In this document: positions 3,196 through 22,773 of the stretch, in pieces
Layout: every line of letters starts with the position of its first letter
Numbering within the stretch: position 1 is the stretch's first letter
Source of the DNA: a virus
DNA: 22,773 nt
Virus record (IMG/VR): IMGVR_UViG_3300010354_000710
Span: 1 to 22,773 of that record
Strand: one strand, 5' to 3'
Notes under the pieces: generated by a model
Seen by the model: only the letters and a program-made list of their open reading frames with translations
What the model was told of the DNA's origin: nothing
Database searches by the model: none
Translations under genes and position numbers: made by a program

Positions 3196-4790
3196 GCAAG
3201 CGGAAGCGCAAGGCGCAGCAGCCCGCCACGGGCCCGGCCCCCAGGCGCCGGGCCTACGAGGGCGCCATGGTCAGCAGGCTGACGGCGGACTGGGTGACCA
3301 GCTCCACCAGCGCCGACGCCGAGATCGACGGCAGCCTGGTACGGCTGCGCAACCGCAGCCGGCAGCTTGTCAGGGACAACGGCTACGCACAGCAGGCGTT
3401 GCGCTGCATCGTCAGCAATGTGATCGGAACGGGCGTGAGGATGCAGGCCCAGGTTCCGATGCAACGTGGCCGCGGCCGGCTCGACACCGCGATCAATGAC
3501 GCGATTGAACGGCGATGGGCGGCATGGTGCCATGCCGACACTTGCCACGCAGCGGGTCAGCTGAGCCTGCAGGAGATCGCCCGCCTGGCCTGGCGGGCCA
3601 CTGCCGAATCCGGCGAGGTGTTCATCCGCCTGGTGCCGGAGGCGATGGGCGCGGGCGTGGTGCCGTTGGCGCTGGAGATCCTGGAGGCCGACCTATGCGA
3701 CGAGGGCAAGACCAGCGGCCCCGATGCCAGCGGCAACGAGTGGCGCATGGGCGTGCGCGTCAACCGCTGGGGCAGGCCGCTGTCCTATCGGTTCCGCACC
3801 CGCCACCCCGGCGATGTTTCCGGCTCTGTCGGCTACGACGTGGTAGACGTTCCAGCCGATCAGATCATCCACCTGCGCCGCATCGAGCGGCCGGGCCAGA
3901 CCCGGGGCGTGCCATGGTTCGCCGCGGCCATCAAGGCCCTGCATCACCTCGCCGGTTACCAGGAGGCAGAGGTGGTCAGGGCCCGCGCGGCCTCCTCGTT
4001 GATGGGCTTCATCACCAGCCCAGAGGGCGAGCTGATCGGCGATGACGTCTACGACGCCGAGCGGGTGACCAACTTCGAGCCCGGTGCGTTCAAGTACCTA
4101 GCGCCCGGCGAATCCGTCAGCGTGCCGCAGCTCGACGCGCCTGATGGGCAGTTTGAGCCGTTCCTTCGGGCGATGCTGCGGGGCGTGGCTGCATCGACTG
4201 GCTGCAGTTTCGAGCAGGTGAGCAACGACTACAGCCAGAGCAACTACAGCTCAAACCGGATGAGCCGGCAGGATTCGATCGAGATGTGGAAGGGTGAGCA
4301 GCAGTACGCCATCGAGCATTTCTATCGGCCGATCTTCGCCCGCTGGATGGATGCAGCGGTAGCGGTCGGAGACCTGCAGCTGCCGAACTACGACGCGCTC
4401 CGCGAGCGTTACCAGGCTGTGCGCTGGTATCCGCGCGCCTGGGGTTTCCTGGATCCACAGGTGGAGATCGGCGCCTACAAGGACGCCGTGCGCTGCGGCT
4501 TCATGACACAGGCGCAGGTTGTTGCAGAGCAGGGCGGCGACCTGGCGGAGCTTATGCGCGACCTCGCTGCAGAGCGCGAGCTGGCGCAGGAGCTCGGCCT
4601 CACCCTCGACATCGATGCCGGCAAGGTCAGCAGCGCCGGCTTGACGCAGGCTCGCCCGCCTGGATCGATCATCCCGCAGGATCCCTACGCCGCAGAGGAC
4701 ACGGCAGCGCAGGCCAGCAGCGACAGCCAGGACGAGCCGGAATCCCCCGACGATCCCGAGGACAGCGACGACATGGAGGAGCCCACCTGA
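3192..4790 (+). CDS. Portal protein, lambda gpB family
   Basis: Forms the dodecameric ring at the capsid vertex through which DNA enters and leaves. At 532 residues it has the usual length. Lambda-type portal signatures are visible: an N-terminal basic stretch, then NGYAQQALRCIVSNVIGTG (about 60-80), the central RATAESGEVFIRLVPE segment, DVPADQIIHLRRIERPGQTRGVPW (about 220-242), and the clip/stem-side block with NDYSQSNYSSNRMSRQD (about 345-361). The C-terminus is Asp/Glu/Ser/Pro-rich and disordered. The ATG overlaps the preceding stop (ATGA). The final TGA shares one base with the capsid polyprotein start, which has a strong GGAGGA Shine-Dalgarno inside the end of this gene. Confidence 0.95.
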   Translation: MSKRKRKAQQPATGPAPRRRAYEGAMVSRLTADWVTSSTSADAEIDGSLVRLRNRSRQLVRDNGYAQQALRCIVSNVIGTGVRMQAQVPMQRGRGRLDTAINDAIERRWAAWCHADTCHAAGQLSLQEIARLAWRATAESGEVFIRLVPEAMGAGVVPLALEILEADLCDEGKTSGPDASGNEWRMGVRVNRWGRPLSYRFRTRHPGDVSGSVGYDVVDVPADQIIHLRRIERPGQTRGVPWFAAAIKALHHLAGYQEAEVVRARAASSLMGFITSPEGELIGDDVYDAERVTNFEPGAFKYLAPGESVSVPQLDAPDGQFEPFLRAMLRGVAASTGCSFEQVSNDYSQSNYSSNRMSRQDSIEMWKGEQQYAIEHFYRPIFARWMDAAVAVGDLQLPNYDALRERYQAVRWYPRAWGFLDPQVEIGAYKDAVRCGFMTQAQVVAEQGGDLAELMRDLAAERELAQELGLTLDIDAGKVSSAGLTQARPPGSIIPQDPYAAEDTAAQASSDSQDEPESPDDPEDSDDMEEPT

Positions 4791-7018
4791 TGGCGAACGT
4801 TAACGGCACCGAGATCGACCTGTTGCCGACCGAGGGCATGCGCACCGAGGCGCAGCGGTATCGGGACTGGAAGGCCGACGGGAGGCCCGGCGGGCAGGAC
4901 GCAGCAGCCGCCCGCGCCGGGCAGATCCTGAGCGGTGATGAACTGTCACCGGACACGGTGATCACCATGTCCGCCTGGTTCGCGCGGCATGAGGTGGACA
5001 AGGCCGGCGAAGGCTTCAGCCCCGGAGAGGACGGCTACCCCTCACCCGGTCGGGTGGCCTGGGCGGCCTGGGGCGGCGACCCGGGGCAGACCTGGGCTGA
5101 TGCCAAGGCCGAGCGAATCAAGGCGCTGAGAGAGGATCGCGGCGCAGTCTCTAGTCTGAATGCAACATCAACCGCGCCAATGGAGCTCAGGGATCAGCTA
5201 TCGCGTGAGCAGCTGCGCAGAGTCGAGGCGTTCGACTATGCCGCAGCGGTTCGCGCGGCAGACGATCCCGATGCTGAACCCTCCCGCTCCCTGGAGTTCT
5301 CGTTCTCAAGCGAGGCCCCTGTGGAGCGGTGGTTTGGCTCCGAGGTGCTCAGTCACGACGCCGGATCAGTCGACCTCAGCCGCCTCAATGACGGCGCCCC
5401 CCTGCTCTGGAACCACAATCCGGACCAGGTGCTGGGCGTCGTCGAACGCGGCTGGCTGGACGACGAGCGGCGCCGCGGCATGGTGTCGGTTCGATTCTCC
5501 CGCAGCGCCTTTGCTGAGGAGAAGTTGGCCGACATTCGAGACGGCATCCTGCGGAATGTGAGCGTCGGCTATGCCATCGCTGACGCGAAGCAGGAAAAGG
5601 ACGGCTCTGTGGTTGCCACCCGTTGGCAGCCCATGGAGGTGTCCGTGGTGTCGATTCCGGCTGATGCCGGCGTCGGCATCGGGCGCAGCATCAGCGCCAC
5701 ACACCCAGCGGCCCAGGCCGCCCCACCCTCAACCCATCAAACCCCCGTGGAAGAAACTCTCAATCTTGACGAGGTGCGGGCTCAGGCTGCGGCCGGAGAG
5801 CGCGCTCGCGTTGCCAGCATCACCGCCTTGACCCGCCAGCATGGCGCCGAGGATCTGGCCCAGGGCCTGATTGAATCCGGCGCCTCTGAGGCTGACGCCA
5901 TGCGCCAGGTGCTCGACGGCCTGGCCAAGCGCGCCAAGCAGCCCGCCACCCCTGCGGCCCCTGCTGCGCAGCCGATCGGCGGCGGCTCGGCTGACATCGG
6001 CCTGAGCGAGCGCGAGGCCCGCTCTTTCAGTTTCGTGCGGGCCATTCGCGCCATGGCCTACCCCCAGGACCGCGCCATGCAGGAGGCCGCGGCCTTTGAG
6101 CGCGAGGTTTCTGATGCGACCGCCTCGCAGATGGGGATGACCCGCGACGGCTTCCACGTTCCCCATGACGTGCTCCGCCGTGATCTGACCGTCGGCACCG
6201 CCAGCGCTGCCGGTGATCTCGTCTTCACCGACGCCCGCCCCGGTTCGTTCATCGAGTTGCTCCGCAACCGACTGGCCCTCTCCACCCTGGGCGCCCAGAC
6301 CCTGACCGGACTGCAGGGCCCCGTAGCCATCCCCAAGCAGACCGGCGGAGCAACCGCCTACTGGGTCGCCGAGAAGGGTGAGCCCACCGAGTCCAACCCG
6401 ACCGTGGGCCAGGTCAACCTGGCACCGAAGACCCTGGGCGCCTTCACTGAGTTCAGCCGCCGCCTGATGCTCCAGTCGTCTATCGACGTTGAGACCATGG
6501 TTCGCAACGAACTCACAACCGTGATGGCCCTGGAGATCGACCGGAGCGCCCTCTACGGCATTGGCTCCAGCAGCCAGCCGAAGGGCCTGAAGTTCATCAC
6601 GGGGCTGAACACCGAGGACTTCAACGCTGACAGCCCCACTTATGCGGAGCTGGTCAGCATGGAGACCAAGGTGAACGCCGACAACGCCGACATCGGTGCG
6701 ATGGCCTATCTCACCAACTCCACCCGGTACGGCGCCTTCAAGACAACCGAGAAGGCCAGCAGCACTGCTCAGTTCGTGCTGGAGCCCGGCGGCACGGTCA
6801 ACGGTTATGCCGTCGTTCGCTCCAATCAGGTGGAGGCCGGGGATGTTTTCTTCGGCGTGTGGAGCGCGATGATCATGGCGATGTGGGGATCGCTCACTTT
6901 GCAAGTGAACCCCTATGCACTCGACAAGAGCGGCGGCGTTCGCGTCACCGCCTTTCAGGATGTTGACGTGGCAGTCCGCTACCCCGAGTGCTTCACTCGC
7001 GGCAATAACACCCTCTGA
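4790..7018 (+). CDS. Capsid polyprotein: leader domain, prohead protease and HK97-fold major capsid protein
   Basis: A 742-residue fusion. Residues about 10-115 form a distinct leader domain (ending QTWADAKAERIKALRED) of a kind I associate with phage head proteins. Residues about 165-300 are an HK97-type prohead serine protease; the likely catalytic residues are His209 (LLWNHNPD), Ser258 (GILRNVSVGY) and possibly Glu283 (QPMEVSVVSIPAD). Residues about 320-440 are helical, matching a delta/scaffolding domain. The rest, to 742, is the HK97-fold coat (YWVAEKGEPTESNP, KTLGAFTEFSRRLML, a C-terminal VAVRYPECF). The protease would free the coat protein and remove the scaffold during maturation. The start has a good GGAGGA ribosome site. 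There is no sign of a stop or second start between the parts. Confidence 0.93.
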   Translation: MANVNGTEIDLLPTEGMRTEAQRYRDWKADGRPGGQDAAAARAGQILSGDELSPDTVITMSAWFARHEVDKAGEGFSPGEDGYPSPGRVAWAAWGGDPGQTWADAKAERIKALREDRGAVSSLNATSTAPMELRDQLSREQLRRVEAFDYAAAVRAADDPDAEPSRSLEFSFSSEAPVERWFGSEVLSHDAGSVDLSRLNDGAPLLWNHNPDQVLGVVERGWLDDERRRGMVSVRFSRSAFAEEKLADIRDGILRNVSVGYAIADAKQEKDGSVVATRWQPMEVSVVSIPADAGVGIGRSISATHPAAQAAPPSTHQTPVEETLNLDEVRAQAAAGERARVASITALTRQHGAEDLAQGLIESGASEADAMRQVLDGLAKRAKQPATPAAPAAQPIGGGSADIGLSEREARSFSFVRAIRAMAYPQDRAMQEAAAFEREVSDATASQMGMTRDGFHVPHDVLRRDLTVGTASAAGDLVFTDARPGSFIELLRNRLALSTLGAQTLTGLQGPVAIPKQTGGATAYWVAEKGEPTESNPTVGQVNLAPKTLGAFTEFSRRLMLQSSIDVETMVRNELTTVMALEIDRSALYGIGSSSQPKGLKFITGLNTEDFNADSPTYAELVSMETKVNADNADIGAMAYLTNSTRYGAFKTTEKASSTAQFVLEPGGTVNGYAVVRSNQVEAGDVFFGVWSAMIMAMWGSLTLQVNPYALDKSGGVRVTAFQDVDVAVRYPECFTRGNNTL

Positions 7019-14558: not shown

Positions 14559-15022
14559 TGGCACGCGGCCAAGCCCTGTTCGTGCAGCTCCGAGACGAGG
14601 CGGGCACCGTCACCTATGCCCGCTGGCAGAGCTTCTGGATTGATGCCACAGTGACATGGGAGAGCCAGCCCTGGGCCTACATGCCGATGGACTGGGCCGG
14701 CATCACCAGCGGATCAGCCGGTGGCGATCAGGCGACGATCACCCTGCCGCGGCTGCCCTCGGTTGATGGCATCATGCGCCGCGCACTGGCTGGCCCCTGG
14801 CTGGCGGTGCTGAACGTCTATCAGTTCGATGAGGCCCTCGATGCCGGTGCACCCCAGGCGGGGCAGGTGCTCGTGGGTTCGTGCATCGGGCAGGTGATTA
14901 GCGCCAGCGCAACGGCCTCCACGATCGTGCTCAGGCTGGGCTCTGCCCTCTCGCCTGTCGGCGCGCAGTTCCCACCGGTGACGGCAACGGATGCCCTGAT
15001 CGGAGTGCCTTGCGTCCTATGA
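14558..15022 (+). CDS. Tail-tip associated protein (distal-tail-like), function inferred
   Basis: A 154-residue beta-rich protein immediately after the tape measure, where distal tail or hub-docking proteins (lambda M/L-like) sit. Visible segments are QALFVQLRDEAGTVTYARWQ, a Trp/Met-rich stretch (SQPWAYMPMDWAGITSG), ATITLPRLPSVDGIMRRAL and a last strand pair around STIVLRLGSALSPVGAQFPP. No Cys-rich lambda L motif is present. Its first ATG shares one base with the tape measure stop, and its TGA overlaps the next start (ATGA). I infer a tail-tip role from order and beta-rich make-up; the exact family is not recognised. Confidence 0.65.
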   Translation: MARGQALFVQLRDEAGTVTYARWQSFWIDATVTWESQPWAYMPMDWAGITSGSAGGDQATITLPRLPSVDGIMRRALAGPWLAVLNVYQFDEALDAGAPQAGQVLVGSCIGQVISASATASTIVLRLGSALSPVGAQFPPVTATDALIGVPCVL

Positions 15023-17277
15023 CATATCCCGCGTTTATCAACAGACGGGAGAGCTTCAATCCCGACGGGACGCGACGGCAGGCAGCAGTCGATCAGCAGT
15101 CGTTTTCCCTGCCGGTGATCGCCCCGGATGCGACCGAGGCCGAGAGCGGCCGGCTGCCACCTCCGGCGCAGGCTGCTGAGGCAGCAGCCCAGACCCCGCT
15201 GAACTCACCGCAGCAGGCCATGGCGATCGGAGAACCGGTGCCAGTGGTGTTCTGCCGCCGTCGAAACAACATCGGCGGAGTGCTGCTGTTCCCGAAGGCG
15301 ACAGAGGCGGCCTTCTCCAACTCCTCCACGCAGCAGACGGCGCGCTATCACTGCGTCCTGGGAGTCGGCCCGATGGGCTCCATCCAGGTGCGCGATTTCC
15401 GGGTGGGCGCCTGTCGCGTCGGGACATTCTCCCAGAACTTCGACAAGCGGGCCGGCACCTGGGCACCGGGCAACACCGCCACGGTGCAGAGCGGCTATCA
15501 GGTGCCGACCTTCCCGACCGCCTGCGGTGGCGGCGGCGCCTACACCGGGCTCAGCACCCTCGAGTTCAGCAGCACCACGGTCGGCGGGTCTGACGACTGG
15601 CGCCTCGGCTGCAATGTGTTCGTGCGCGAGGGAATGACCGTCTCCCGTCTACTCGGCGGCAGTGGCGCATCCGATAACTTTGTTGATTTGCTTTTGTGGG
15701 CCCTGCAGCGATCGAGCAGGGTGCCGGCCGCGATGATCGACATGGCCAGCTTCACCGCCGCGGCGCGGTTCCTGGACGTGAACGGCCTGTTCTGCAATGG
15801 CGAGTTCACTGAATCCGGCAACCTGGCAGATTTCATGGTGCGGATGTTGCCGTACTTCCTGCTCAGGGAGACGCGCATCGGCGGGAAGTACGGGCTGCGC
15901 CCGTTGGTGCCGATCAACACAGATGGAACCATTGACACAAACACCCTGGCGCCGGACTGGGTGCTGACGGAATCGGTGATCCTGCCCGGCAGCTTCTCGC
16001 AGGAATGGAGCGATGCCGGCACCCGACTGGCTCCCCGGCTGGTGATGATGTGGCGCCAGCAGGACGACACCAGCCTGCCGATTGTGCGAACCCTGCATGT
16101 GGGCCTGGGTCGCTCAGGACCGCCGGAGCAGCACGACCTATCGCAGTTCTGCGCATCAGAGATTCATGCGGCACGGGTCGGCGCCTACTTTCACGGGCGT
16201 CGCTACCTCTCAACCCATACAGGCAGCTGCACCCTCCTGCCAGGCAGCCAGACGGGCAGGATCAGCCAGGGCGACGTGGTGGCCATCAACCTGCCATTGA
16301 TCACTGGCCGGGAGGCGGACGGCGCGATCGCAGACTGGTACGCCGTGGAATCGGTGACGCCAGCGGCTGATGGGTCAGAGGCCCTCACGCTCTCGCATTT
16401 CCCGGTGGATTCAATGGCCCGCAGCCTGCTCGCCCTGCAGGTGGCAGGCGCCACTGCGCCTGGAAGCCTGTTGCCCTATCACCCAATCGGCGCCTGCGAC
16501 GTGCCAGGCCGGAGCACTGATCAGTCCGTGCCGGCCAGCAGCACCAGAGGCAGCGAAGTGCAGTTCACAGACTGGGGCGGCGGCCTGACCGTCGGCCCTG
16601 GAACTACCTCTCAGGGCAGCGGTGGCAGTGGCAGCGGTTCCGGCACCTACGACACCAGCACAGTTCCCGATTATCTGCCGGAATCTGAGGAGGCGCCCAA
16701 GTCACCGCCGGTCAATCCCGCAATGCCGGGCGGACCATTGAAGCCGTCGACAGAGATAGACAACCCAGATCCGGGCGCTTACGCCGACGAATGCCCAAAC
16801 GGAACGCAAACGGTCTATGTGCGTGTTCATTATGCGGCGCTTTCTTTAAGTAGCGCACAGCCAGCAAATACAAGCATTGCCACGAAGTGGGGCATGATCT
16901 CCAGCGTGGAAGGGTACTCTAGCGGCGGCCCTGTGGTGCTCAACAGGATATATTACCAAACGCCACAGGGTGTTAATACCACCGGCATTGTCTTCTCTAC
17001 TCGCGACGTAAACGCAGGCACCCCAGGCTACAACGTGAACATCCCCCTGGAGCTTGAGCAGTACGCCTACAGCTGCGACGTAGGCGGCGGCACTCCTGGA
17101 CCGATCGTCAATAGTAGCCGGTACACGGTGAGCAAAGGCGACACTCTCCCCGACATTGCCAGCAGAAGGCTGGGCAACTCTAACCGTTGGCCTGAGATAT
17201 ACAACCTCAACAAAGACAAGATTGAGAATCCAGACCTGATCTACCCGGGCCAGGTGCTCAAACTGCCCGCCCCCTGA
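15019..17277 (+). CDS. Tail-tip hub / host-specificity protein with C-terminal LysM domain
   Basis: A 752-residue protein from ATG 15019, which overlaps the preceding stop; a TTG nine bases earlier is less likely. Residues about 60-240 look like the start of a gpJ-type tail hub (QQAMAIGEPVPVVFCRRRNN, HCVLGVGPMGSIQVRDFRVG). The middle has more hub-like strands (to about 490). A Gly/Ser linker follows at about 530-545, then an AT-richer segment (residues about 575-694) with a probable beta domain. The end (about 702-751) is a classic LysM (YTVSKGDTLPDIASRRLG, NLNKDKIENPDLIYPGQVL), a peptidoglycan-binding fold. The protein probably contacts the host surface and cell wall during infection. The lower G+C near the end suggests a swapped receptor or wall-binding module. 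Confidence 0.85.
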   Translation: MTYPAFINRRESFNPDGTRRQAAVDQQSFSLPVIAPDATEAESGRLPPPAQAAEAAAQTPLNSPQQAMAIGEPVPVVFCRRRNNIGGVLLFPKATEAAFSNSSTQQTARYHCVLGVGPMGSIQVRDFRVGACRVGTFSQNFDKRAGTWAPGNTATVQSGYQVPTFPTACGGGGAYTGLSTLEFSSTTVGGSDDWRLGCNVFVREGMTVSRLLGGSGASDNFVDLLLWALQRSSRVPAAMIDMASFTAAARFLDVNGLFCNGEFTESGNLADFMVRMLPYFLLRETRIGGKYGLRPLVPINTDGTIDTNTLAPDWVLTESVILPGSFSQEWSDAGTRLAPRLVMMWRQQDDTSLPIVRTLHVGLGRSGPPEQHDLSQFCASEIHAARVGAYFHGRRYLSTHTGSCTLLPGSQTGRISQGDVVAINLPLITGREADGAIADWYAVESVTPAADGSEALTLSHFPVDSMARSLLALQVAGATAPGSLLPYHPIGACDVPGRSTDQSVPASSTRGSEVQFTDWGGGLTVGPGTTSQGSGGSGSGSGTYDTSTVPDYLPESEEAPKSPPVNPAMPGGPLKPSTEIDNPDPGAYADECPNGTQTVYVRVHYAALSLSSAQPANTSIATKWGMISSVEGYSSGGPVVLNRIYYQTPQGVNTTGIVFSTRDVNAGTPGYNVNIPLELEQYAYSCDVGGGTPGPIVNSSRYTVSKGDTLPDIASRRLGNSNRWPEIYNLNKDKIENPDLIYPGQVLKLPAP

Positions 17278-18640: not shown

Positions 18641-19375
18641 ATGGCAACCCCGACACTGGCCACCGTCCGCGCCGCTGCTGAGGAGGTGGCCAAACGCGGC
18701 CAGCTGCTGCCCCACCAGCTGGCCGCATTCTCCGCCTTGGATGCTGCCCTGACCCCTGAGCAGCGGAGGGCCTTCACGGACGGCTGGCGGGCCACGGGCA
18801 GCCCGGCAGCATCACCAGCCCCGGCGATCACGGCAGCCCGGCAGACAAACCCGCTCAGCGGATTCCCATTCTTCAGCCAGCTCGACAACGGCCCGGATGG
18901 ATGGAGGCAGTGTCAGACGAGCTCGATTGCCATGTGCCTGGCCTACCTGGGCGTGCCCAGCGTCCGCGACGATCTCGACTACCTGAAGATCGTCCAGAGG
19001 CACGGCGACACCACGAGCCAGGCCGCACACCGGGCGGCGCTGGCGGAACTGGGAGTGCGGGCCCGATTCGTGCAATCCTGCTCTGCGTCGCAGCTGCAGG
19101 CTGAAATCCGCTCTGGTCTGCCCGCGGCCCTGGGCTTCTACCATCACGGGCCTGCGGGCGCCCCCTCGGGTGGCGGGCACTGGCTGGCGTGTTTCGGCTT
19201 TGCTCCGTCCGGCTGGATCGTGAACGACCCCTTCGGGTCATGCGACCTGATCAATGGTGGGTGGGAGCATCGAGGCGGCACCACCGGGAAGGCACAGCTC
19301 TACTCCTACCGCAACTTCAACCCGCGATGGCTGGCCGAAGGACCACGATCGGGCTGGGCCTGGCTGTTCAGCTGA
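18641..19375 (+). CDS. Endolysin with C39-like cysteine peptidase domain
   Basis: A 244-residue protein with no signal peptide. Residues about 5-50 form a small helical domain (LLPHQLAAFSALDAALTPEQ) and a Pro/Ala linker, possibly a targeting part. Residues about 75-240 match the C39-like peptidase fold: the catalytic Cys91 in WRQCQTSSIAMCL, His180 in GGGHWLACFG, and Asp196 in WIVNDPFG, with the block RHGDTTSQAAHRAALAELGV. Such domains are common in phage endolysins and cut peptide bonds in peptidoglycan. Being last in the plus-strand operon also fits a lysis role. The nearest candidate holins are the membrane proteins at 10187-10701 or those before the sigma gene. Confidence 0.85.
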   Translation: MATPTLATVRAAAEEVAKRGQLLPHQLAAFSALDAALTPEQRRAFTDGWRATGSPAASPAPAITAARQTNPLSGFPFFSQLDNGPDGWRQCQTSSIAMCLAYLGVPSVRDDLDYLKIVQRHGDTTSQAAHRAALAELGVRARFVQSCSASQLQAEIRSGLPAALGFYHHGPAGAPSGGGHWLACFGFAPSGWIVNDPFGSCDLINGGWEHRGGTTGKAQLYSYRNFNPRWLAEGPRSGWAWLFS

Positions 19376-19559: not shown

Positions 19560-19839
19560 GGGCGGTGATGACGGTTGGCGGCTGGATCCGGCGCTCAGTC
19601 TGAGCGCAGCTCTGGCCCTGGAGGCAGCACGCCGCGCAATCCCCCGTCTTCATCGGCACGACTTGGAGGCCCAGCTGGATCAGGCGCTGATCGCCATGAC
19701 GCAGCACGATCACCTATTGCGCCAGGTGCTGGCTCGGGTTATTGAACTCGAGACCCAGCTGGCCCTGGTGGGGCAGTCAGACCGGCATCGGCACTGGGCG
19801 GCGGAGCTGATGCAGGAGCTGGCGGAGCATCGAGGCTGA
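19558..19839 (+). CDS. Small helical hypothetical protein overlapping the sigma gene tail
   Basis: A 93-residue helical protein (WRLDPALSLSAALALEAARR, then LEAQLDQALIAMTQHDHLLR and VIELETQLALVGQ) with a heptad-like distribution of Leu/Ile, so a coiled coil is likely. It has no known domain. The start ATG lies in CATG shared with the divergent gene at 19559. The last 101 bases are antisense to the end of the sigma factor gene. Either the two coding regions really overlap or one of them is shorter. The sigma tail in this stretch is Pro/Ala-rich and poorly constrained, so overlap is feasible. Confidence 0.55.
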   Translation: MGGDDGWRLDPALSLSAALALEAARRAIPRLHRHDLEAQLDQALIAMTQHDHLLRQVLARVIELETQLALVGQSDRHRHWAAELMQELAEHRG

Positions 19840-20728
19840 GCTCAAGTTTCTGCAGCACCTGCGGCGGGATCATGTCCCGCCGCAGCAGGTGCTCCAATCG
19901 CTTGAGCACTTGCTGGATTCGATGCTGCCCGCAGCCCTCCTGCTCCGCCAGCTCGCGCGTGGTGCGATGGGGTCCGCCGATCCCATAGCGGGCGCAGACC
20001 AGCCGGGCCAGCCGAGGCGATGACCTGCGCATCCGTTGGATCCGTTCGTGCAGTTCTTCCCGCTCCAGGTCCGGGCCCCTGGCATGCGATGGGATTACAT
20101 CGCTCAGCTGCGAATCACCCTCTCCGATCGGTACATCGAGGGATGCGCAGCCGCGACCGCGCTCCATGTAGAGCTCGATCTCCTGAGGCGACACGCGCAT
20201 CTCCTCCGCGATCTCGGCCAGGCTCGGCGGCCGGCCGAGCGTCAGCTCCAGCTGGTGGTGGCGGGCATCGAATCGGGCGAGCGACTGCGCAAGGCTGGTC
20301 GGCAGGCGGATGGCGCGGCCCGTCATCATGCCGCCGCGCGATATTGCCTGGCGGATCCACCAATAGGCGTAGGTGCTGAACTTATACCCGCGCTCTGGAT
20401 CGAACTTCTCAGCCGCTCGCTGGAGGCCGATGGCACCCTCCTGAAGTGCATCGGCCCGTTCGAGGCGATGGCTGTATTTCGCAGCCACCGACATCACCAG
20501 TCGCAGATTGGCGGCCACCATCCGATCCCGCGCCTTCCGGCCACGGCGGATGGTGGCCTGATGCTCGCGGTCTGGCGGGCCTGGCAGTGGCGCCGACCCT
20601 TTCGGGTGATCCTGCCAGGCGCGGACCAACGCCCCGAGGTGAAGCTCCTCCGCTGGTGTGAGCAGCGGCACCCGGCCAGCCTGGCGGAGCCAATGACCCA
20701 CCATCTCATCGCTGCCGCTGGCCCTCAT
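19739..20728 (-). CDS. Sigma-70 family RNA polymerase sigma factor (RpoD-like, divergent region 4)
   Basis: A 329-residue sigma factor. Region 1.2 is at about 8-40 (MVGHWLRQAGRVPLLTPAEE). Region 2 is at about 65-130, with the core-binding LQEGAIGLQRAAEKFDPERG and the -10-recognition segment YKFSTYAYWWIRQAI. Region 3 lies at about 140-210. Region 4 lies at about 230-285, with its helix-turn-helix at TTRELAEQEGCGQHRIQQVL. The start used is ATG 20728, which overlaps the stop of the upstream membrane protein; the frame is open far upstream but there it covers other genes. In the recognition helix, residues aligned with E. coli R584, E585 and R588 are Q268, H269 and Q272, so the -35 specificity should differ. 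The C-terminal 40 residues are Pro/Ala-rich. It probably directs host polymerase to phage promoters. Confidence 0.88.
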   Translation of the reverse strand: MRASGSDEMVGHWLRQAGRVPLLTPAEELHLGALVRAWQDHPKGSAPLPGPPDREHQATIRRGRKARDRMVAANLRLVMSVAAKYSHRLERADALQEGAIGLQRAAEKFDPERGYKFSTYAYWWIRQAISRGGMMTGRAIRLPTSLAQSLARFDARHHQLELTLGRPPSLAEIAEEMRVSPQEIELYMERGRGCASLDVPIGEGDSQLSDVIPSHARGPDLEREELHERIQRMRRSSPRLARLVCARYGIGGPHRTTRELAEQEGCGQHRIQQVLKRLEHLLRRDMIPPQVLQKLELSLDAPPAPASAPPPSADAGLTAPPGPAGSRVQ

Positions 20729-20937
20729 GGCGGATCCAATGGCGCCAGCAGCGTGGCCGCCAAGGCCAGTACGCCAGTCAGGCAGGCCCCCCAGGTGGAG
20801 GGCCAACCGATGATCAGCGCCGCGACCGCGACGGCCAGCAACAGGCAGGAGCAGAGCAGGCGCTGGCGACGGAAGCAGCGCGCCCGGTAACGAGCGGCGC
20901 CACGGGTGACGTGGACCTGATCGATGTGCCCCCTCAT
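20725..20937 (-). CDS. Small two-span membrane protein upstream of sigma gene
   Basis: A 70-residue protein with a basic N-terminus (RYRARCFRRQRLL) and two hydrophobic stretches (CLLLAVAVAALIIGW and LTGVLALAATLLAPL) separated by a short WPSTWGA turn. It could be a holin, a membrane anchor that modulates the sigma factor, or another small membrane protein; no family is recognised. It is coupled by 4-base overlaps both to the sigma gene downstream and to the 87-residue gene upstream. Confidence 0.6.
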   Translation of the reverse strand: MRGHIDQVHVTRGAARYRARCFRRQRLLCSCLLLAVAVAALIIGWPSTWGACLTGVLALAATLLAPLDPP

Positions 20938-21197
20938 GGCGTGTCTCCTGGGATGGTCCGAGGTGGCGGGAACTGAGGCTTGGGGATGATGGTCGGCTTC
21001 GGCGTGGCGGGCCCGCCCTTGCCGTTGCCACGCTGGACGCGGCCAGGATCGAGGCGTAGGGGCGGCGAACCAACAGGTCCGCGTCTGTTCTCGTGGTTGA
21101 ACCGGCGGCGCGGATCGTCCTGGGTTTCGCGGTCGAATCGCCCGAGGATCCAGCCAACCAGGAAGCTGCCGCAGGCGACGGAGAGGAGGGCGGTCAT
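20934..21197 (-). CDS. Small membrane-anchored Pro-rich protein
   Basis: An 87-residue product from ATG 21197. The longer reading to 21287 would overlap the coupled upstream gene. One N-terminal membrane helix (MTALLSVACGSFLVGWILGR) is followed by a charged and Pro/Arg/Gly-rich tail (TPKPTIIPKPQFPPPRTIPG near the end). A spanin-like or anchor function is possible but not shown; no coiled coil or lipobox is seen. The start overlaps the preceding stop (ATGA). Confidence 0.55.
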   Translation of the reverse strand: MTALLSVACGSFLVGWILGRFDRETQDDPRRRFNHENRRGPVGSPPLRLDPGRVQRGNGKGGPATPKPTIIPKPQFPPPRTIPGDTP

Positions 21198-21373
21198 GCC
21201 TGCCCCCGGCTCAGCAGGTGGCGACCCCAGGCCACCGCGACGGCGACGGCCTGAGCGTTCGGTGGCACCCCGTAGGACGCCTGCCACCAGGCCCGATACT
21301 CCGCCTCGAGGGCGGCGGTGGAGATGGCCGCATCAGCGGCCCGGAGTGCGGCGATGGTGTCCGGATCCATCAT
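21194..21373 (-). CDS. 59-residue protein between ssDNA-binding and membrane proteins
   Basis: This short gene reads MMDPDTIAALRAADAAISTA, then a Trp/Tyr-rich helix (EAEYRAWWQASYGVPPNAQA) and an Ala/Val helix with a Trp, ending in HLLSRGQA. Codon use is strongly GC3-rich as in its neighbours. The first ATG at 21373 shares one base with the stop of the gene before it (TGATG); a second ATG follows immediately. The stop overlaps the next start (ATGA). This exact coupling on both sides is the main evidence for the gene. The function is unknown; no family is recognised. Confidence 0.6.
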   Translation of the reverse strand: MMDPDTIAALRAADAAISTAALEAEYRAWWQASYGVPPNAQAVAVAVAWGRHLLSRGQA

Positions 21374-21957
21374 CAGAATGGGGGCTCCTCTTCACCGGCG
21401 AACTCATCGACATAGCCGGCAGGCTCGGCGACGCTGTATCCGTCCTGCTCCTCGAAGCCGTCGGTAGCGTCCTCCTCCTCGCGGGGCACGTAGGCCAGCA
21501 CCTGAGCAGCGCGAGGCCACAGGGACAGCCCGACACCTTCAGGCCGCTCCCAGCCGGCGGCAGTGAACTTGATGATCAGCTCCGAGCCGTTGCCGATGGC
21601 GGCACCGTTCCAGGGCTGCTTCTTGGCGTCGATGATCTGCGGCCCTTTGACCTTGCTGCCATCGTCGTTGATGAACTCCAATGTCTTGAACTTGACGACG
21701 GTGATCGACGGATCCTGTGCGTCTTGCTTCCAGGGCCTGCCCTTGTCGCTGATGCGCTTCTTCGTGCCGTGCGTGTCCGTCAGGATCGCCTCGAGCTTCG
21801 CCATGAATGCCTTGTGCTTCGGATTGGTGCCGGGGCTCAGCAGTAGCTCACACGTCCAGGCGCGGAGCTTCGATTCATCAAGCTGGGTCCGGGCTGTGAT
21901 CAGGTGCGCCCATCGGACGGGCGCGGCAGGAGTGAAGTGGGTTTCGGTGGATGCCAT
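21373..21957 (-). CDS. Single-stranded DNA-binding protein, gp2.5/DUF2815-like
   Basis: A 194-residue protein with a central OB-fold-like run of strands (VRWAHLITARTQLDESKLRA, then TCELLLSPGTNPKH, PSITVVKFKTLEF and AAIGNGSELIIKFTAAGW). The end is very acidic (YVPREEEDATDGFEEQDGYS to EFAGEEEPPF), as in phage ssDNA-binding proteins, where the acidic tail recruits replication partners and controls binding. This overall plan matches the gp2.5/DUF2815 group, which protects ssDNA in replication and recombination. It is not a close match to a named family, so I hold the family call as likely. The gene lies between the RHH-like protein and the small protein at 21194. Confidence 0.75.
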   Translation of the reverse strand: MASTETHFTPAAPVRWAHLITARTQLDESKLRAWTCELLLSPGTNPKHKAFMAKLEAILTDTHGTKKRISDKGRPWKQDAQDPSITVVKFKTLEFINDDGSKVKGPQIIDAKKQPWNGAAIGNGSELIIKFTAAGWERPEGVGLSLWPRAAQVLAYVPREEEDATDGFEEQDGYSVAEPAGYVDEFAGEEEPPF

Positions 21958-21966
21958 GGATGTGAT

Positions 21967-22170
21967 TCAGAGAAGGGATTTGAGGCTGCAGGCCAGGCGG
22001 ATCAGGTGATGGATCGCGCCGGACCGGGTGAGGCCGAGCTCAGCCGCCACGCGATCGACGGCGGCCAGGGTGTCGGGGCGCAGCACCGAGAAGACCCGAA
22101 CGGATCCGGCCTGGCGGCTGCGGCCATAGAGGCGAGGGCGCCGGGGAGGCGTGGCGGAGGGCTCAGACAT
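21967..22170 (-). CDS. Ribbon-helix-helix-like DNA-binding protein
   Basis: A 67-residue protein. After a basic N-terminus with Pro and Arg (PSATPPRRPRLYGRSRQAGS) it has a strand (RVFSVLRPD) and two helices (LAAVDRVAAELGLTRSGAIH and LIRLACSLKSLL). This is the size and layout of a CopG/Arc-type RHH, a small dimeric transcription regulator that binds with its strand. Position in the operon fits autoregulation of this operon or another phage switch. It overlaps the stop of the 79-residue gene by 8 bases and lies 9 bases before the ssDNA-binding gene. Confidence 0.65.
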   Translation of the reverse strand: MSEPSATPPRRPRLYGRSRQAGSVRVFSVLRPDTLAAVDRVAAELGLTRSGAIHHLIRLACSLKSLL

Positions 22171-22402
22171 GGAGGCTCAGCAGGCCCCATCGGTGAGGCT
22201 CGGCAGGGTGGGCAGCGAGCGTGGCAGGGATGAGCCGCCACTGATCCGGCCGGGGCTGCTTCGTGGCCCGCAGCCATTCCGCTGCGGACTGGGCCAGGCG
22301 GAACTGATGAGCCTGGCCGGGGCTGGCCACCAGCTCGTCGGTGCCCTGCCAGCGGCCATCCGGGGCCTGGAGAAGCCAGGCCATGCGGGTGAGGGTTGTC
22401 AT
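22163..22402 (-). CDS. Small hypothetical protein, early operon
   Basis: A 79-residue product starting at ATG 22402, which overlaps the stop of the repeat protein (ATGA). A 27-base longer reading to 22429 is possible but lies within that gene. It has a mixed strand/helix pattern (MAWLLQAPDGRWQGTDELVA, HQFRLAQSAAEWLRATKQP, then WRLIPATLAAHP and WGLLSLHV) with several tryptophans. It is acidic-to-neutral, soluble and without a recognised domain. The 8-base overlap with the RHH-like gene suggests coupling. Confidence 0.55.
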   Translation of the reverse strand: MTTLTRMAWLLQAPDGRWQGTDELVASPGQAHQFRLAQSAAEWLRATKQPRPDQWRLIPATLAAHPAEPHRWGLLSLHV

Positions 22403-22773
22403 GGCTCCACCCAGTCGTTGATGTGACATTGCCTGGCGTCTTCGGGGATCTGGCCAAGGTCGCCCGAGAGGCCGGAGCAGTCGCCCCGGAGATCGGAGCA
22501 GTCGCCCCAGAGGCCGGAGCAGTCGCCCCGGAGATCGGGGCTGATGACGCCCGAGAGGCCGGAGCAGTCGCCCCAGAGGCCGGAGCAGTTGCCCCGGAGA
22601 TCGGGGCTGATGACGCCCGAGAGGCCGGAGCAGTTGCCCCAGAGGCCGGAGCAGTCGCCCGAGAGGCCGGAGCAGTCGCCCCGGAGATCGGAGCAGTTGC
22701 CCCGGAGATCGGGGCTGATGACGCCCGAGAGGCCGGAGCAGTTGCCCCGGAGATCGGGGCTGATGACGCCCGA
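22399..22773 (-). CDS. Repeat-solenoid protein (partial), Cys-Ser-Gly-Leu repeats
   Basis: The gene runs off the right edge, so the N-terminus is missing; 124 residues are visible. They consist of fourteen units: ten of seven residues, [N/D]-C-S-[G/D]-L-[S/W/R]-G, and four of eight, V-I-S-P-D-L-R-G. A non-repeat C-terminal end follows (DLGQIPEDARQCHINDWVEP). The regular Leu-x-Gly spacing and the same-face Cys suggest a tight right-handed solenoid, perhaps a beta-helix, with Leu pointing inside. Similar short 'xLxGxCSGLxGD' proteins are known to me as phage hypotheticals, but their function is not established. The codons are strongly GC3-rich, unlike the opposite frame. The stop overlaps the start of the next gene (ATGA). 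Confidence 0.72.
   Translation of the reverse strand, partial: SGVISPDLRGNCSGLSGVISPDLRGNCSDLRGDCSGLSGDCSGLWGNCSGLSGVISPDLRGNCSGLWGDCSGLSGVISPDLRGDCSGLWGDCSDLRGDCSGLSGDLGQIPEDARQCHINDWVEP
22461..22773. repeat. Tandem 21/24-bp coding repeats
   Basis: Fourteen contiguous units plus 7 bases, each starting cgcccg, cgcccc or tgcccc on the plus strand. Ten are 21 bases and four (22524, 22590, 22698 and 22743) are 24 bases, ending ggctgatga instead of gagcagt. All lengths are multiples of three, so unit gain or loss keeps the minus-strand gene in frame. Units differ at the same few positions (gaggcc/gatcgg, cccg/cccc, tgcc/cgcc), which points to recent shuffling by recombination or slippage. Confidence 0.9.

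What the first reader, a model, noticed from the sequence alone, without database searches (positions are those of the whole stretch)
22399..22773. Tandem-repeat solenoid protein at the start of the visible minus-strand operon
The visible 104-residue repeat block (22461-22773) holds fourteen units in only two types, seven-residue CS-units and eight-residue VISPDLRG units, in a mixed order. Every seven-residue unit keeps a cysteine. Similar repeats occur in phage hypotheticals, but I know no established function. A binding scaffold or decoy for a host protein is a guess. Its position ahead of replication and sigma genes suggests early expression.
Basis: partly seen in the sequence, partly recalled or inferred. 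Interest (0 to 1): 0.72.

Follow-up and report, generated by a model that had tools for sequence, protein, structure and literature searches.

The report
Fast-changing heptad-repeat phage protein
The repeats are the end of a real but undescribed phage protein built from 4 to 35 seven-residue units; its surface residues change much faster than silent DNA positions, as expected of a binding surface in an arms race with the host, though what it binds is unknown.

Summary
Minus-strand ORF 22399-22773 is open to the contig end and encodes 14 units: ten Cys heptads [DN]CSxLxG and four octads VISPDLRG, then a 20-residue tail. Homologues settle the frame: 72 related genes have no stop in this frame and 163-805 in each other frame. 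The family is essentially phage-only (over 100 loci in viral contigs; 4 in 84,980 cellular genomes). It has a conserved N-cap (LYHY...GxNxxMxG), an array of 4-35 heptads, and one of two C-caps. It sits in phage recombination/replication regions.

The cysteine is not special: equally common relatives carry Val at that core position under the same caps. The striking feature is variation. Units differ almost only non-synonymously, at presumed outward positions 1, 3, 4 and 6 (the window shows zero silent differences among 14 units). In the least-varied arrays silent variants number 7 against 32 expected. Near-identical phages differ in unit number and in surface codons.

Best explanation: a short-repeat beta-solenoid acting as a rapidly reshuffled binding scaffold made early in infection. 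The fold is supported only indirectly (AlphaFold pLDDT 46-51). The target is unknown. No literature on this repeat was found. Short-read assembly of repeats is the main caveat.

The parts
22399..22773 (-). 5'-truncated gene of the heptad-repeat protein (124 residues visible; stop codon 22399-22401)
   Evidence: open frame; homologues with the same frame, repeats and tail
22462..22767 (-). 14 complete repeat units: 10 heptads [DN]CSxLxG and 4 octads VISPDLRG, with no synonymous difference among units
22744..22767 (-). octad unit VISPDLRG (others at 22699-22722, 22591-22614, 22525-22548): heptad with one residue added between S and L and Ile in place of Cys
   Evidence: same type of unit in other members: EISSGLRG, xVSPDLRG, DISDGLRG, NVSRYLTG
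22402..22461 (-). C-terminal cap DLGQIPEDARQCHINDWVEP
   Evidence: aligns with IPxxxRPCxLxDWVxx caps; I, P, R and W invariant in alignment A2
22163..22429 (-). next gene, 88 aa, unknown function, start overlapping the end of the repeat gene
   Evidence: ORF; no family match
21967..22170 (-). small ribbon-helix-helix-like regulator (67 aa)
   Evidence: phrog_4738 transcriptional repressor E=2.3e-4; order kept before SSB and sigma in relatives
21373..21957 (-). Gp2.5-like ssDNA-binding protein
   Evidence: phrog_112 E=1.5e-7; relatives at 48-73% identity
19739..21157 (-). phage-borne sigma-70 family factor (longest ORF; the true start is probably further in)
   Evidence: Pfam sigma-70 regions 1.2, 2 and 3 above cut-off, region 4 below it; phrog_351 E=1.4e-55

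Best explanation
The ORF is the C-terminal part of a phage-specific protein: an N-cap, an array of 4-35 heptads [DN]-[C/V]-[ST]-x-L-x-G (occasionally octads), and a short C-cap. Probable structure (inferred): a short-repeat beta-solenoid in which C/V2 and L5 fill the core, Gly7 makes a turn and positions 1, 3, 4 and 6 face outward. Probable mode of action (inferred): made early, from the recombination/replication region, it acts as a stoichiometric binding scaffold whose surface is retuned quickly by gain, loss and shuffling of units that differ at the outward positions. The likeliest use is to bind and neutralise or redirect a variable host factor (defence or DNA-metabolism protein). Shown: family, frame, caps, phage restriction, genomic context, C/V exchange, excess of amino-acid-changing variation, array turnover between near-identical assemblies. 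Inferred: fold, early expression, binding, identity of target.
For: Homologues with N-cap, heptads and C-cap in viral contigs; only 4 loci in 84,980 cellular genomes, the Desulfovibrio one beside phage-type recombination genes. Same-strand neighbours within 3.5 kb match exonucleases, RecE, Erf/Sak annealing proteins, Holliday resolvases, NinB, Gam, HNH, helicases and methylases. Cys 95.5% in C-type arrays, but Val arrays are about as common (57 vs 70 stretches), have the same caps and mix with C-type on a cap tree (13 changes; at least 3 forced by supported branches). Variation: window 0 silent vs N/D, G/D, S/W/R changes; L006 33 heptads with no silent change. Least-varied arrays: silent variants 7 vs 32.0 +- 4.3 expected; surface sites polymorphic 121/195 vs silent wobble 21/117, p=8e-15. 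Near-identical phages: about 40 non-synonymous vs 4 synonymous codon changes in heptads plus 0-11 unit gains/losses (flanks 78 vs 50); L007/L008 differ by one base in 10,456 and it is a heptad position-4 change. Non-helical: mean helix cost 0.70 for the window block vs 0.39 for Lpp, Gly invariant, Pro in octads; AF2 shows period-7 beta bridges.
Against: AF2 confidence is low (pLDDT 46 and 51) and Foldseek finds nothing significant, so the fold and outward positions are not established. No binding partner, expression or phenotype data exist. Unit-number differences come from metagenome assemblies, which can collapse or expand repeats. Arrays with more variation have as many silent changes as expected (342 vs 351 pooled), so the excess is confined to young arrays. 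Pentapeptide arrays in the same phages show the same pattern, so it may be general to short solenoid arrays. Some near-identical pairs share members and are not independent.
Confidence: 0.5

Rival explanations
1. Modular reader of a linear polymer: like TAL effectors, each heptad contacts one element of nucleic acid (or another repetitive ligand) through its variable residues, and shuffling units reprogrammes specificity.
For: Near-identical repeats with two to three hypervariable positions and array reshuffling resemble the repeat/polymorphic-residue logic of TAL effectors (PMC4168661 abstract); neighbours are DNA recombination genes.
Against: No fold relation to TALEs; the net charge is mildly acidic (median -6, range -16 to +5), unlike typical DNA binders; variable residues are few-state (D/N, G/D/E, R/S/W) and no code was found.
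Confidence: 0.12
2. DNA-mimic inhibitor of a host DNA-binding enzyme (gyrase, restriction enzyme, nuclease), working as Qnr/MfpA pentapeptide-repeat proteins or Ocr do.
For: Short-repeat solenoid in an early phage region; most members net negative; pentapeptide-repeat beta-solenoids are known to mimic DNA and bind gyrase (PMC10886550); one phage carries a pentapeptide gene 1 bp downstream (L021).
Against: Charge is weak and R is the commonest residue at position 6 (34%); several members are neutral or basic; D exchanges freely with N.
Confidence: 0.2
3. Alpha-helical coiled coil or fibre/structural protein (minor head or tail-needle like), given a hydrophobic heptad.
For: V-type members hit Pfam LPP above cut-off and tail-needle entries; phrog_19577 is labelled minor head protein.
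Against: Gly invariant and often two per heptad, Pro in octads, helix cost 0.70 vs 0.39; AF2 not helical; neighbours are DNA metabolism genes, not head/tail genes; matches cover the heptads only.
Confidence: 0.1
4. Cysteine array for metal or redox chemistry.
For: One Cys per heptad, 95.5% conserved within C-type arrays.
Against: The same protein occurs with all-Val arrays and the same caps; octads carry Ile or Val there.
Confidence: 0.03
5. Neutral or targeted-mutation array: a locally mutagenic or recombinogenic repeat with little selection on its surface.
For: Unit gain/loss is frequent; changes are confined to the same sites in many arrays.
Against: A mutational account must hit codon positions that change amino acids and spare silent ones in genes of different base composition; silent deficit 7 vs 32. 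Core and caps are conserved across divergent phages.
Confidence: 0.1

Closest known systems
Pentapeptide-repeat proteins (Pfam PF00805; Qnr, MfpA, AlbG)
   Same: Short-unit repeats with small and large core residues, probably beta-solenoid; also found in these phages, with the same excess of amino-acid-changing unit variation (L135, L024)
   Different: 7-residue unit [DN][C/V][ST]xLxG instead of A[DN]LXX; no Pfam pentapeptide match; different caps
Grass antifreeze beta-roll (Pfam PF21300, LbR_Ice_bind)
   Same: Seven-residue repeating unit in a beta-roll; weak sub-threshold profile matches over about 70 residues (best 20.2 bits vs cut-off 30, L118)
   Different: Below cut-off in every member; no ice-related context
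TAL effector repeats
   Same: Works like: near-identical repeats with hypervariable positions
   Different: 33-35 residue helical hairpins (general knowledge), secreted by Xanthomonas; no sequence relation
phrog_19577 (labelled minor head protein)
   Same: Contains similar heptads (E down to 1.5e-23)
   Different: Match limited to heptads (profile positions about 50-190 of 378); our family lies in recombination regions
UOF80481.1, hypothetical protein of Caudoviricetes sp. ctkAd229 (MW202691.1)
   Same: Only annotated full-length relative found in the phage collection; same N-cap and heptads, near Sak, NinB and SSB genes
   Different: No function assigned

Membership tests
Heptad-repeat phage family described here | contiguous LxG[DN][C/V][ST]x heptads | tested here: met
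Heptad-repeat phage family described here | C-cap IPxxxRPCxLxDWVxx or [DN]LDxCEITDEERxxGVDIxxL | tested here: met
   window tail IPEDARQCHINDWVEP
Heptad-repeat phage family described here | N-cap with LYHY and GxNxxMxG | not testable with these tools
   N-terminus lies beyond the contig end; present in most full-length relatives
Pentapeptide repeat (PF00805) | tandem A[DN]LXX pentapeptides, profile above cut-off | tested here: not met
   no PF00805 match in window or 20 homologues
Pentapeptide repeat (PF00805) | right-handed quadrilateral beta-solenoid | tested here: inconclusive
   AF2 pLDDT 46-51; Foldseek E > 0.1 although leading PDB hits include beta-solenoids such as AlbG
Coiled-coil / LPP (PF04728) / tail needle | alpha-helical heptad | tested here: not met
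   helix cost 0.70 vs 0.39, invariant Gly, Pro octads; AF2 not helical; experimental confirmation lacking
phrog_19577 minor head protein | full-length match and head-module context | tested here: not met
   heptads only; neighbours are recombination genes
Grass antifreeze beta-roll (PF21300) | profile score above 30 bits | tested here: not met
   best 20.2 bits
TAL effector | 33-35 residue helical repeats with a two-residue variable site | tested here: not met
   unit length is 7-8 residues

The most novel reading that the evidence does not exclude
A previously undescribed, widespread class of phage early proteins made of heptad modules whose variable residues form a rapidly reprogrammable recognition surface: a minimal, recombination-tuned binding system by which phages keep pace with varying host targets.
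Probability: 0.3. Interest if true: 0.88.

Novelty: new variant of a known kind. Interest (0 to 1): 0.64.

Why it matters
The family occurs across many unrelated phages, in the region that holds recombination and host-takeover genes, yet lacks a Pfam, NCBIfam or correctly named PHROG entry and was not found in open-access papers. The deficit of silent changes among units means the protein surface is being selected to change. If it is a programmable binder, unit order would predict target, and the modules would be a simple design scaffold. It is directly testable: one gene, short units, natural alleles differing by single surface residues.

Tried and rejected
Cys array as metal or disulfide device: rejected because all-Val arrays share the caps. 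Coiled coil or minor head protein: rejected on helix propensity, Pro octads and context. Pfam MSG (PF02349) hits in C-type and LPP, MINT_RAM7 hits in V-type: low-complexity heptad matches. PDB hit 8h2i 'P22' at E=5e-12: sum of weak repeats, no single stretch significant. Stacking period (two or three heptads per coil) sought by autocorrelation of variable positions at lags 1-9: no clear signal. AlphaFold on the window fragment and on a full-length homologue: low confidence. Foldseek PDB and BFVD: nothing below 0.001. Literature searches for the repeat gave no phage paper. Nearest phages sharing RHH-SSB-sigma do not have the repeat gene at this place, so the missing N-terminus could not be read from a close relative.

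Full report
What is there. The window is a whole viral record of 22,773 bases, a fragment. Its right end cuts through a minus-strand gene. Reading in, the gene gives SG, then 14 units (10 heptads [DN]CSxLxG, 4 octads VISPDLRG), then DLGQIPEDARQCHINDWVEP and a stop at 22399-22401. Tandem Repeats Finder scores the block 290 at period 21 and 479 at period 108. Several frames are open here because the units are multiples of three, so homologues were needed to choose the frame. In 72 related genes this frame has no stop and each of the others has 163-805.

Relatives. A protein scan of IMG/VR found 14 loci and an alignment-based scan 72. Full-length members share an N-cap (M.K.L.R....LYHY.......G.N..M.G), the heptad array, and one of two C-caps, [DN]LDxCEITDEERxxGVDIxxL or IPxSxRPCxLxDWVxx; the window has the second. 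Full-length Cys-type arrays have 4 to 35 heptads. Several phages carry two or three paralogues side by side (for example L005, L029, L033, L042). The genome collection (84,980 species) gave four loci, the best on a Desulfovibrio contig beside phage-type recombination genes. In 50,697 phage records the only clear full-length relative is a hypothetical protein of MW202691.1.

The cysteine. Cys fills 95.5% of heptad position 2 in the Cys-type set, but that set was collected with Cys-containing patterns. Matched DNA patterns for Val and Cys arrays returned 57 and 70 stretches. The Val proteins have the same caps, including a Val array on an IPASARPCNIADWIEGD cap (L143). On a tree of caps alone the two types need 13 changes, at least 3 forced by supported branches. 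Octads carry Ile or Val there. The position is therefore best read as a small buried core residue, not a chemical group.

Octads. The window's VISPDLRG is one of a recurring type: EISSGLRG, xVSPDLRG, DISDGLRG, NVSRYLTG, DVTAGLSG all add one residue between S3 and L5. A tolerated insertion, often with Pro, suits a loop between two short strands and not a helix.

Fold. Two AlphaFold jobs gave low confidence (pLDDT 46 and 51), but both show short beta bridges with period seven and almost no helix. Foldseek against the PDB found nothing significant, though beta-solenoids are frequent among the leading hits; BFVD also gave nothing below 0.001. Mean helix cost of the window block is 0.70 against 0.39 for Lpp. 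I infer a short-repeat beta-solenoid with positions 2 and 5 inside, 7 in a turn and 1, 3, 4, 6 outside; the number of heptads per coil is not resolved.

Surroundings. In the window the gene is followed by an 88-aa gene, an RHH-like regulator, a Gp2.5-like ssDNA-binding protein and a sigma-70 factor. RHH, SSB and sigma keep that order in relatives, but only 2 of 12 such records hold the repeat gene and it lies elsewhere in them. Across the family, same-strand neighbours within 3.5 kb match exonucleases, RecE, Erf and Sak annealing proteins, Holliday resolvases, NinB, Gam, HNH nucleases, helicases and methylases. The leading shared families include one packaging family (terminase small subunit) and no head or tail families, against the 'minor head protein' label of phrog_19577, whose match is limited to heptads.

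Variation among units. In the window, units differ at N/D (position 1), G/D (position 4) and S/W/R (position 6); every silent base is identical. L006 has 33 heptads with no silent difference. In arrays with at most seven polymorphic sites, surface amino-acid-changing sites are polymorphic in 121 of 195 cases and silent wobble sites in 21 of 117 (p=8e-15). A simulation that keeps each array's own codons and number of variants gives 7 silent variants observed against 32.0 +- 4.3 expected for the least varied arrays, 40 against 81.3 for up to seven sites, and no deficit when all arrays are pooled (342 against 351). So new variation is mostly amino-acid changing, and silent change accumulates later.

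Variation among phages. Ten pairs of related phages, most with flanks 98-100% identical, differ by 0-11 whole units and by about 40 non-synonymous against 4 synonymous codons within heptads (my count; pairs sharing L025 or L043 are not independent). Flanking ORFs of the overlapping pair set differ by 78 against 50. L007 and L008 differ by a single base in 10,456, and that base changes position 4 of a heptad. One phage occurs with arrays of about 10, 10, 5 and 2 heptads (L025, L028, L066, L085). These are short-read assemblies, so unit numbers need long-read proof; single-base changes in arrays of equal length are safer.

Interpretation. An early-region phage protein with a conserved core and caps and a surface that changes faster than silent sites is most simply a binding scaffold under diversifying selection. 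The partner could be a host defence or DNA-metabolism protein; DNA mimicry as in pentapeptide-repeat proteins (PMC10886550) and modular recognition as in TAL effectors are live rivals. Confidence: real family 0.97, recombination-region context 0.9, solenoid 0.75, diversifying binder 0.5; no target is identified.

Control. Pentapeptide-repeat arrays in the same phages also vary mostly non-synonymously (L135 pN 0.123, pS 0.008; L024 0.119, 0.032). The property may thus be shared by several short-solenoid proteins of phages.

Noticed in passing
window 19739-21157 (-): Phage-encoded sigma-70 family factor with regions 1.2-3 above the Pfam cut-off (region 4 below), next to an RHH regulator and Gp2.5-like SSB; the trio is conserved in related contigs, several with a nearby resolvase-type ORF (tested by Pfam in L092).
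   Followed up: partly
window 4790-7018 (+): 742-aa ORF matching both head maturation protease and major head protein PHROGs: an apparent protease-capsid fusion.
   Followed up: no
window 15010-17277 (+): Large tail-region protein whose C-terminus reads like a LysM domain (by eye, not tested).
   Followed up: no
window 18641-19375 (+): 244-aa protein resembling a C39-like cysteine peptidase, possibly the lysis or virion hydrolase (by eye, not tested).
   Followed up: no
L021:6436-6843: A pentapeptide-repeat gene starts about 1 bp after a heptad-repeat gene; other contigs (L078, L135, L024) also carry pentapeptide-type arrays with few silent differences between units.
   Followed up: partly
L020:3-476; L016:1229-1415; L138:4787-5094: Other short tandem-repeat reading frames (RGTAGS, DAAR, IEAGSF units) in the same phages, again with zero silent variation in the listed frame; that frame was chosen only because it is open.
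   Followed up: no
L015:5090-5093 and L074: Two members with broken arrays: an in-frame stop within the array (L015) and a truncated frame (L074); either assembly error or real on/off variation.
   Followed up: no
L105, L137, L121, L128, L157: Arrays mixing Cys, Val and Ala at position 2, some in large phages (115-239 kb contigs) with long extra domains.
   Followed up: no
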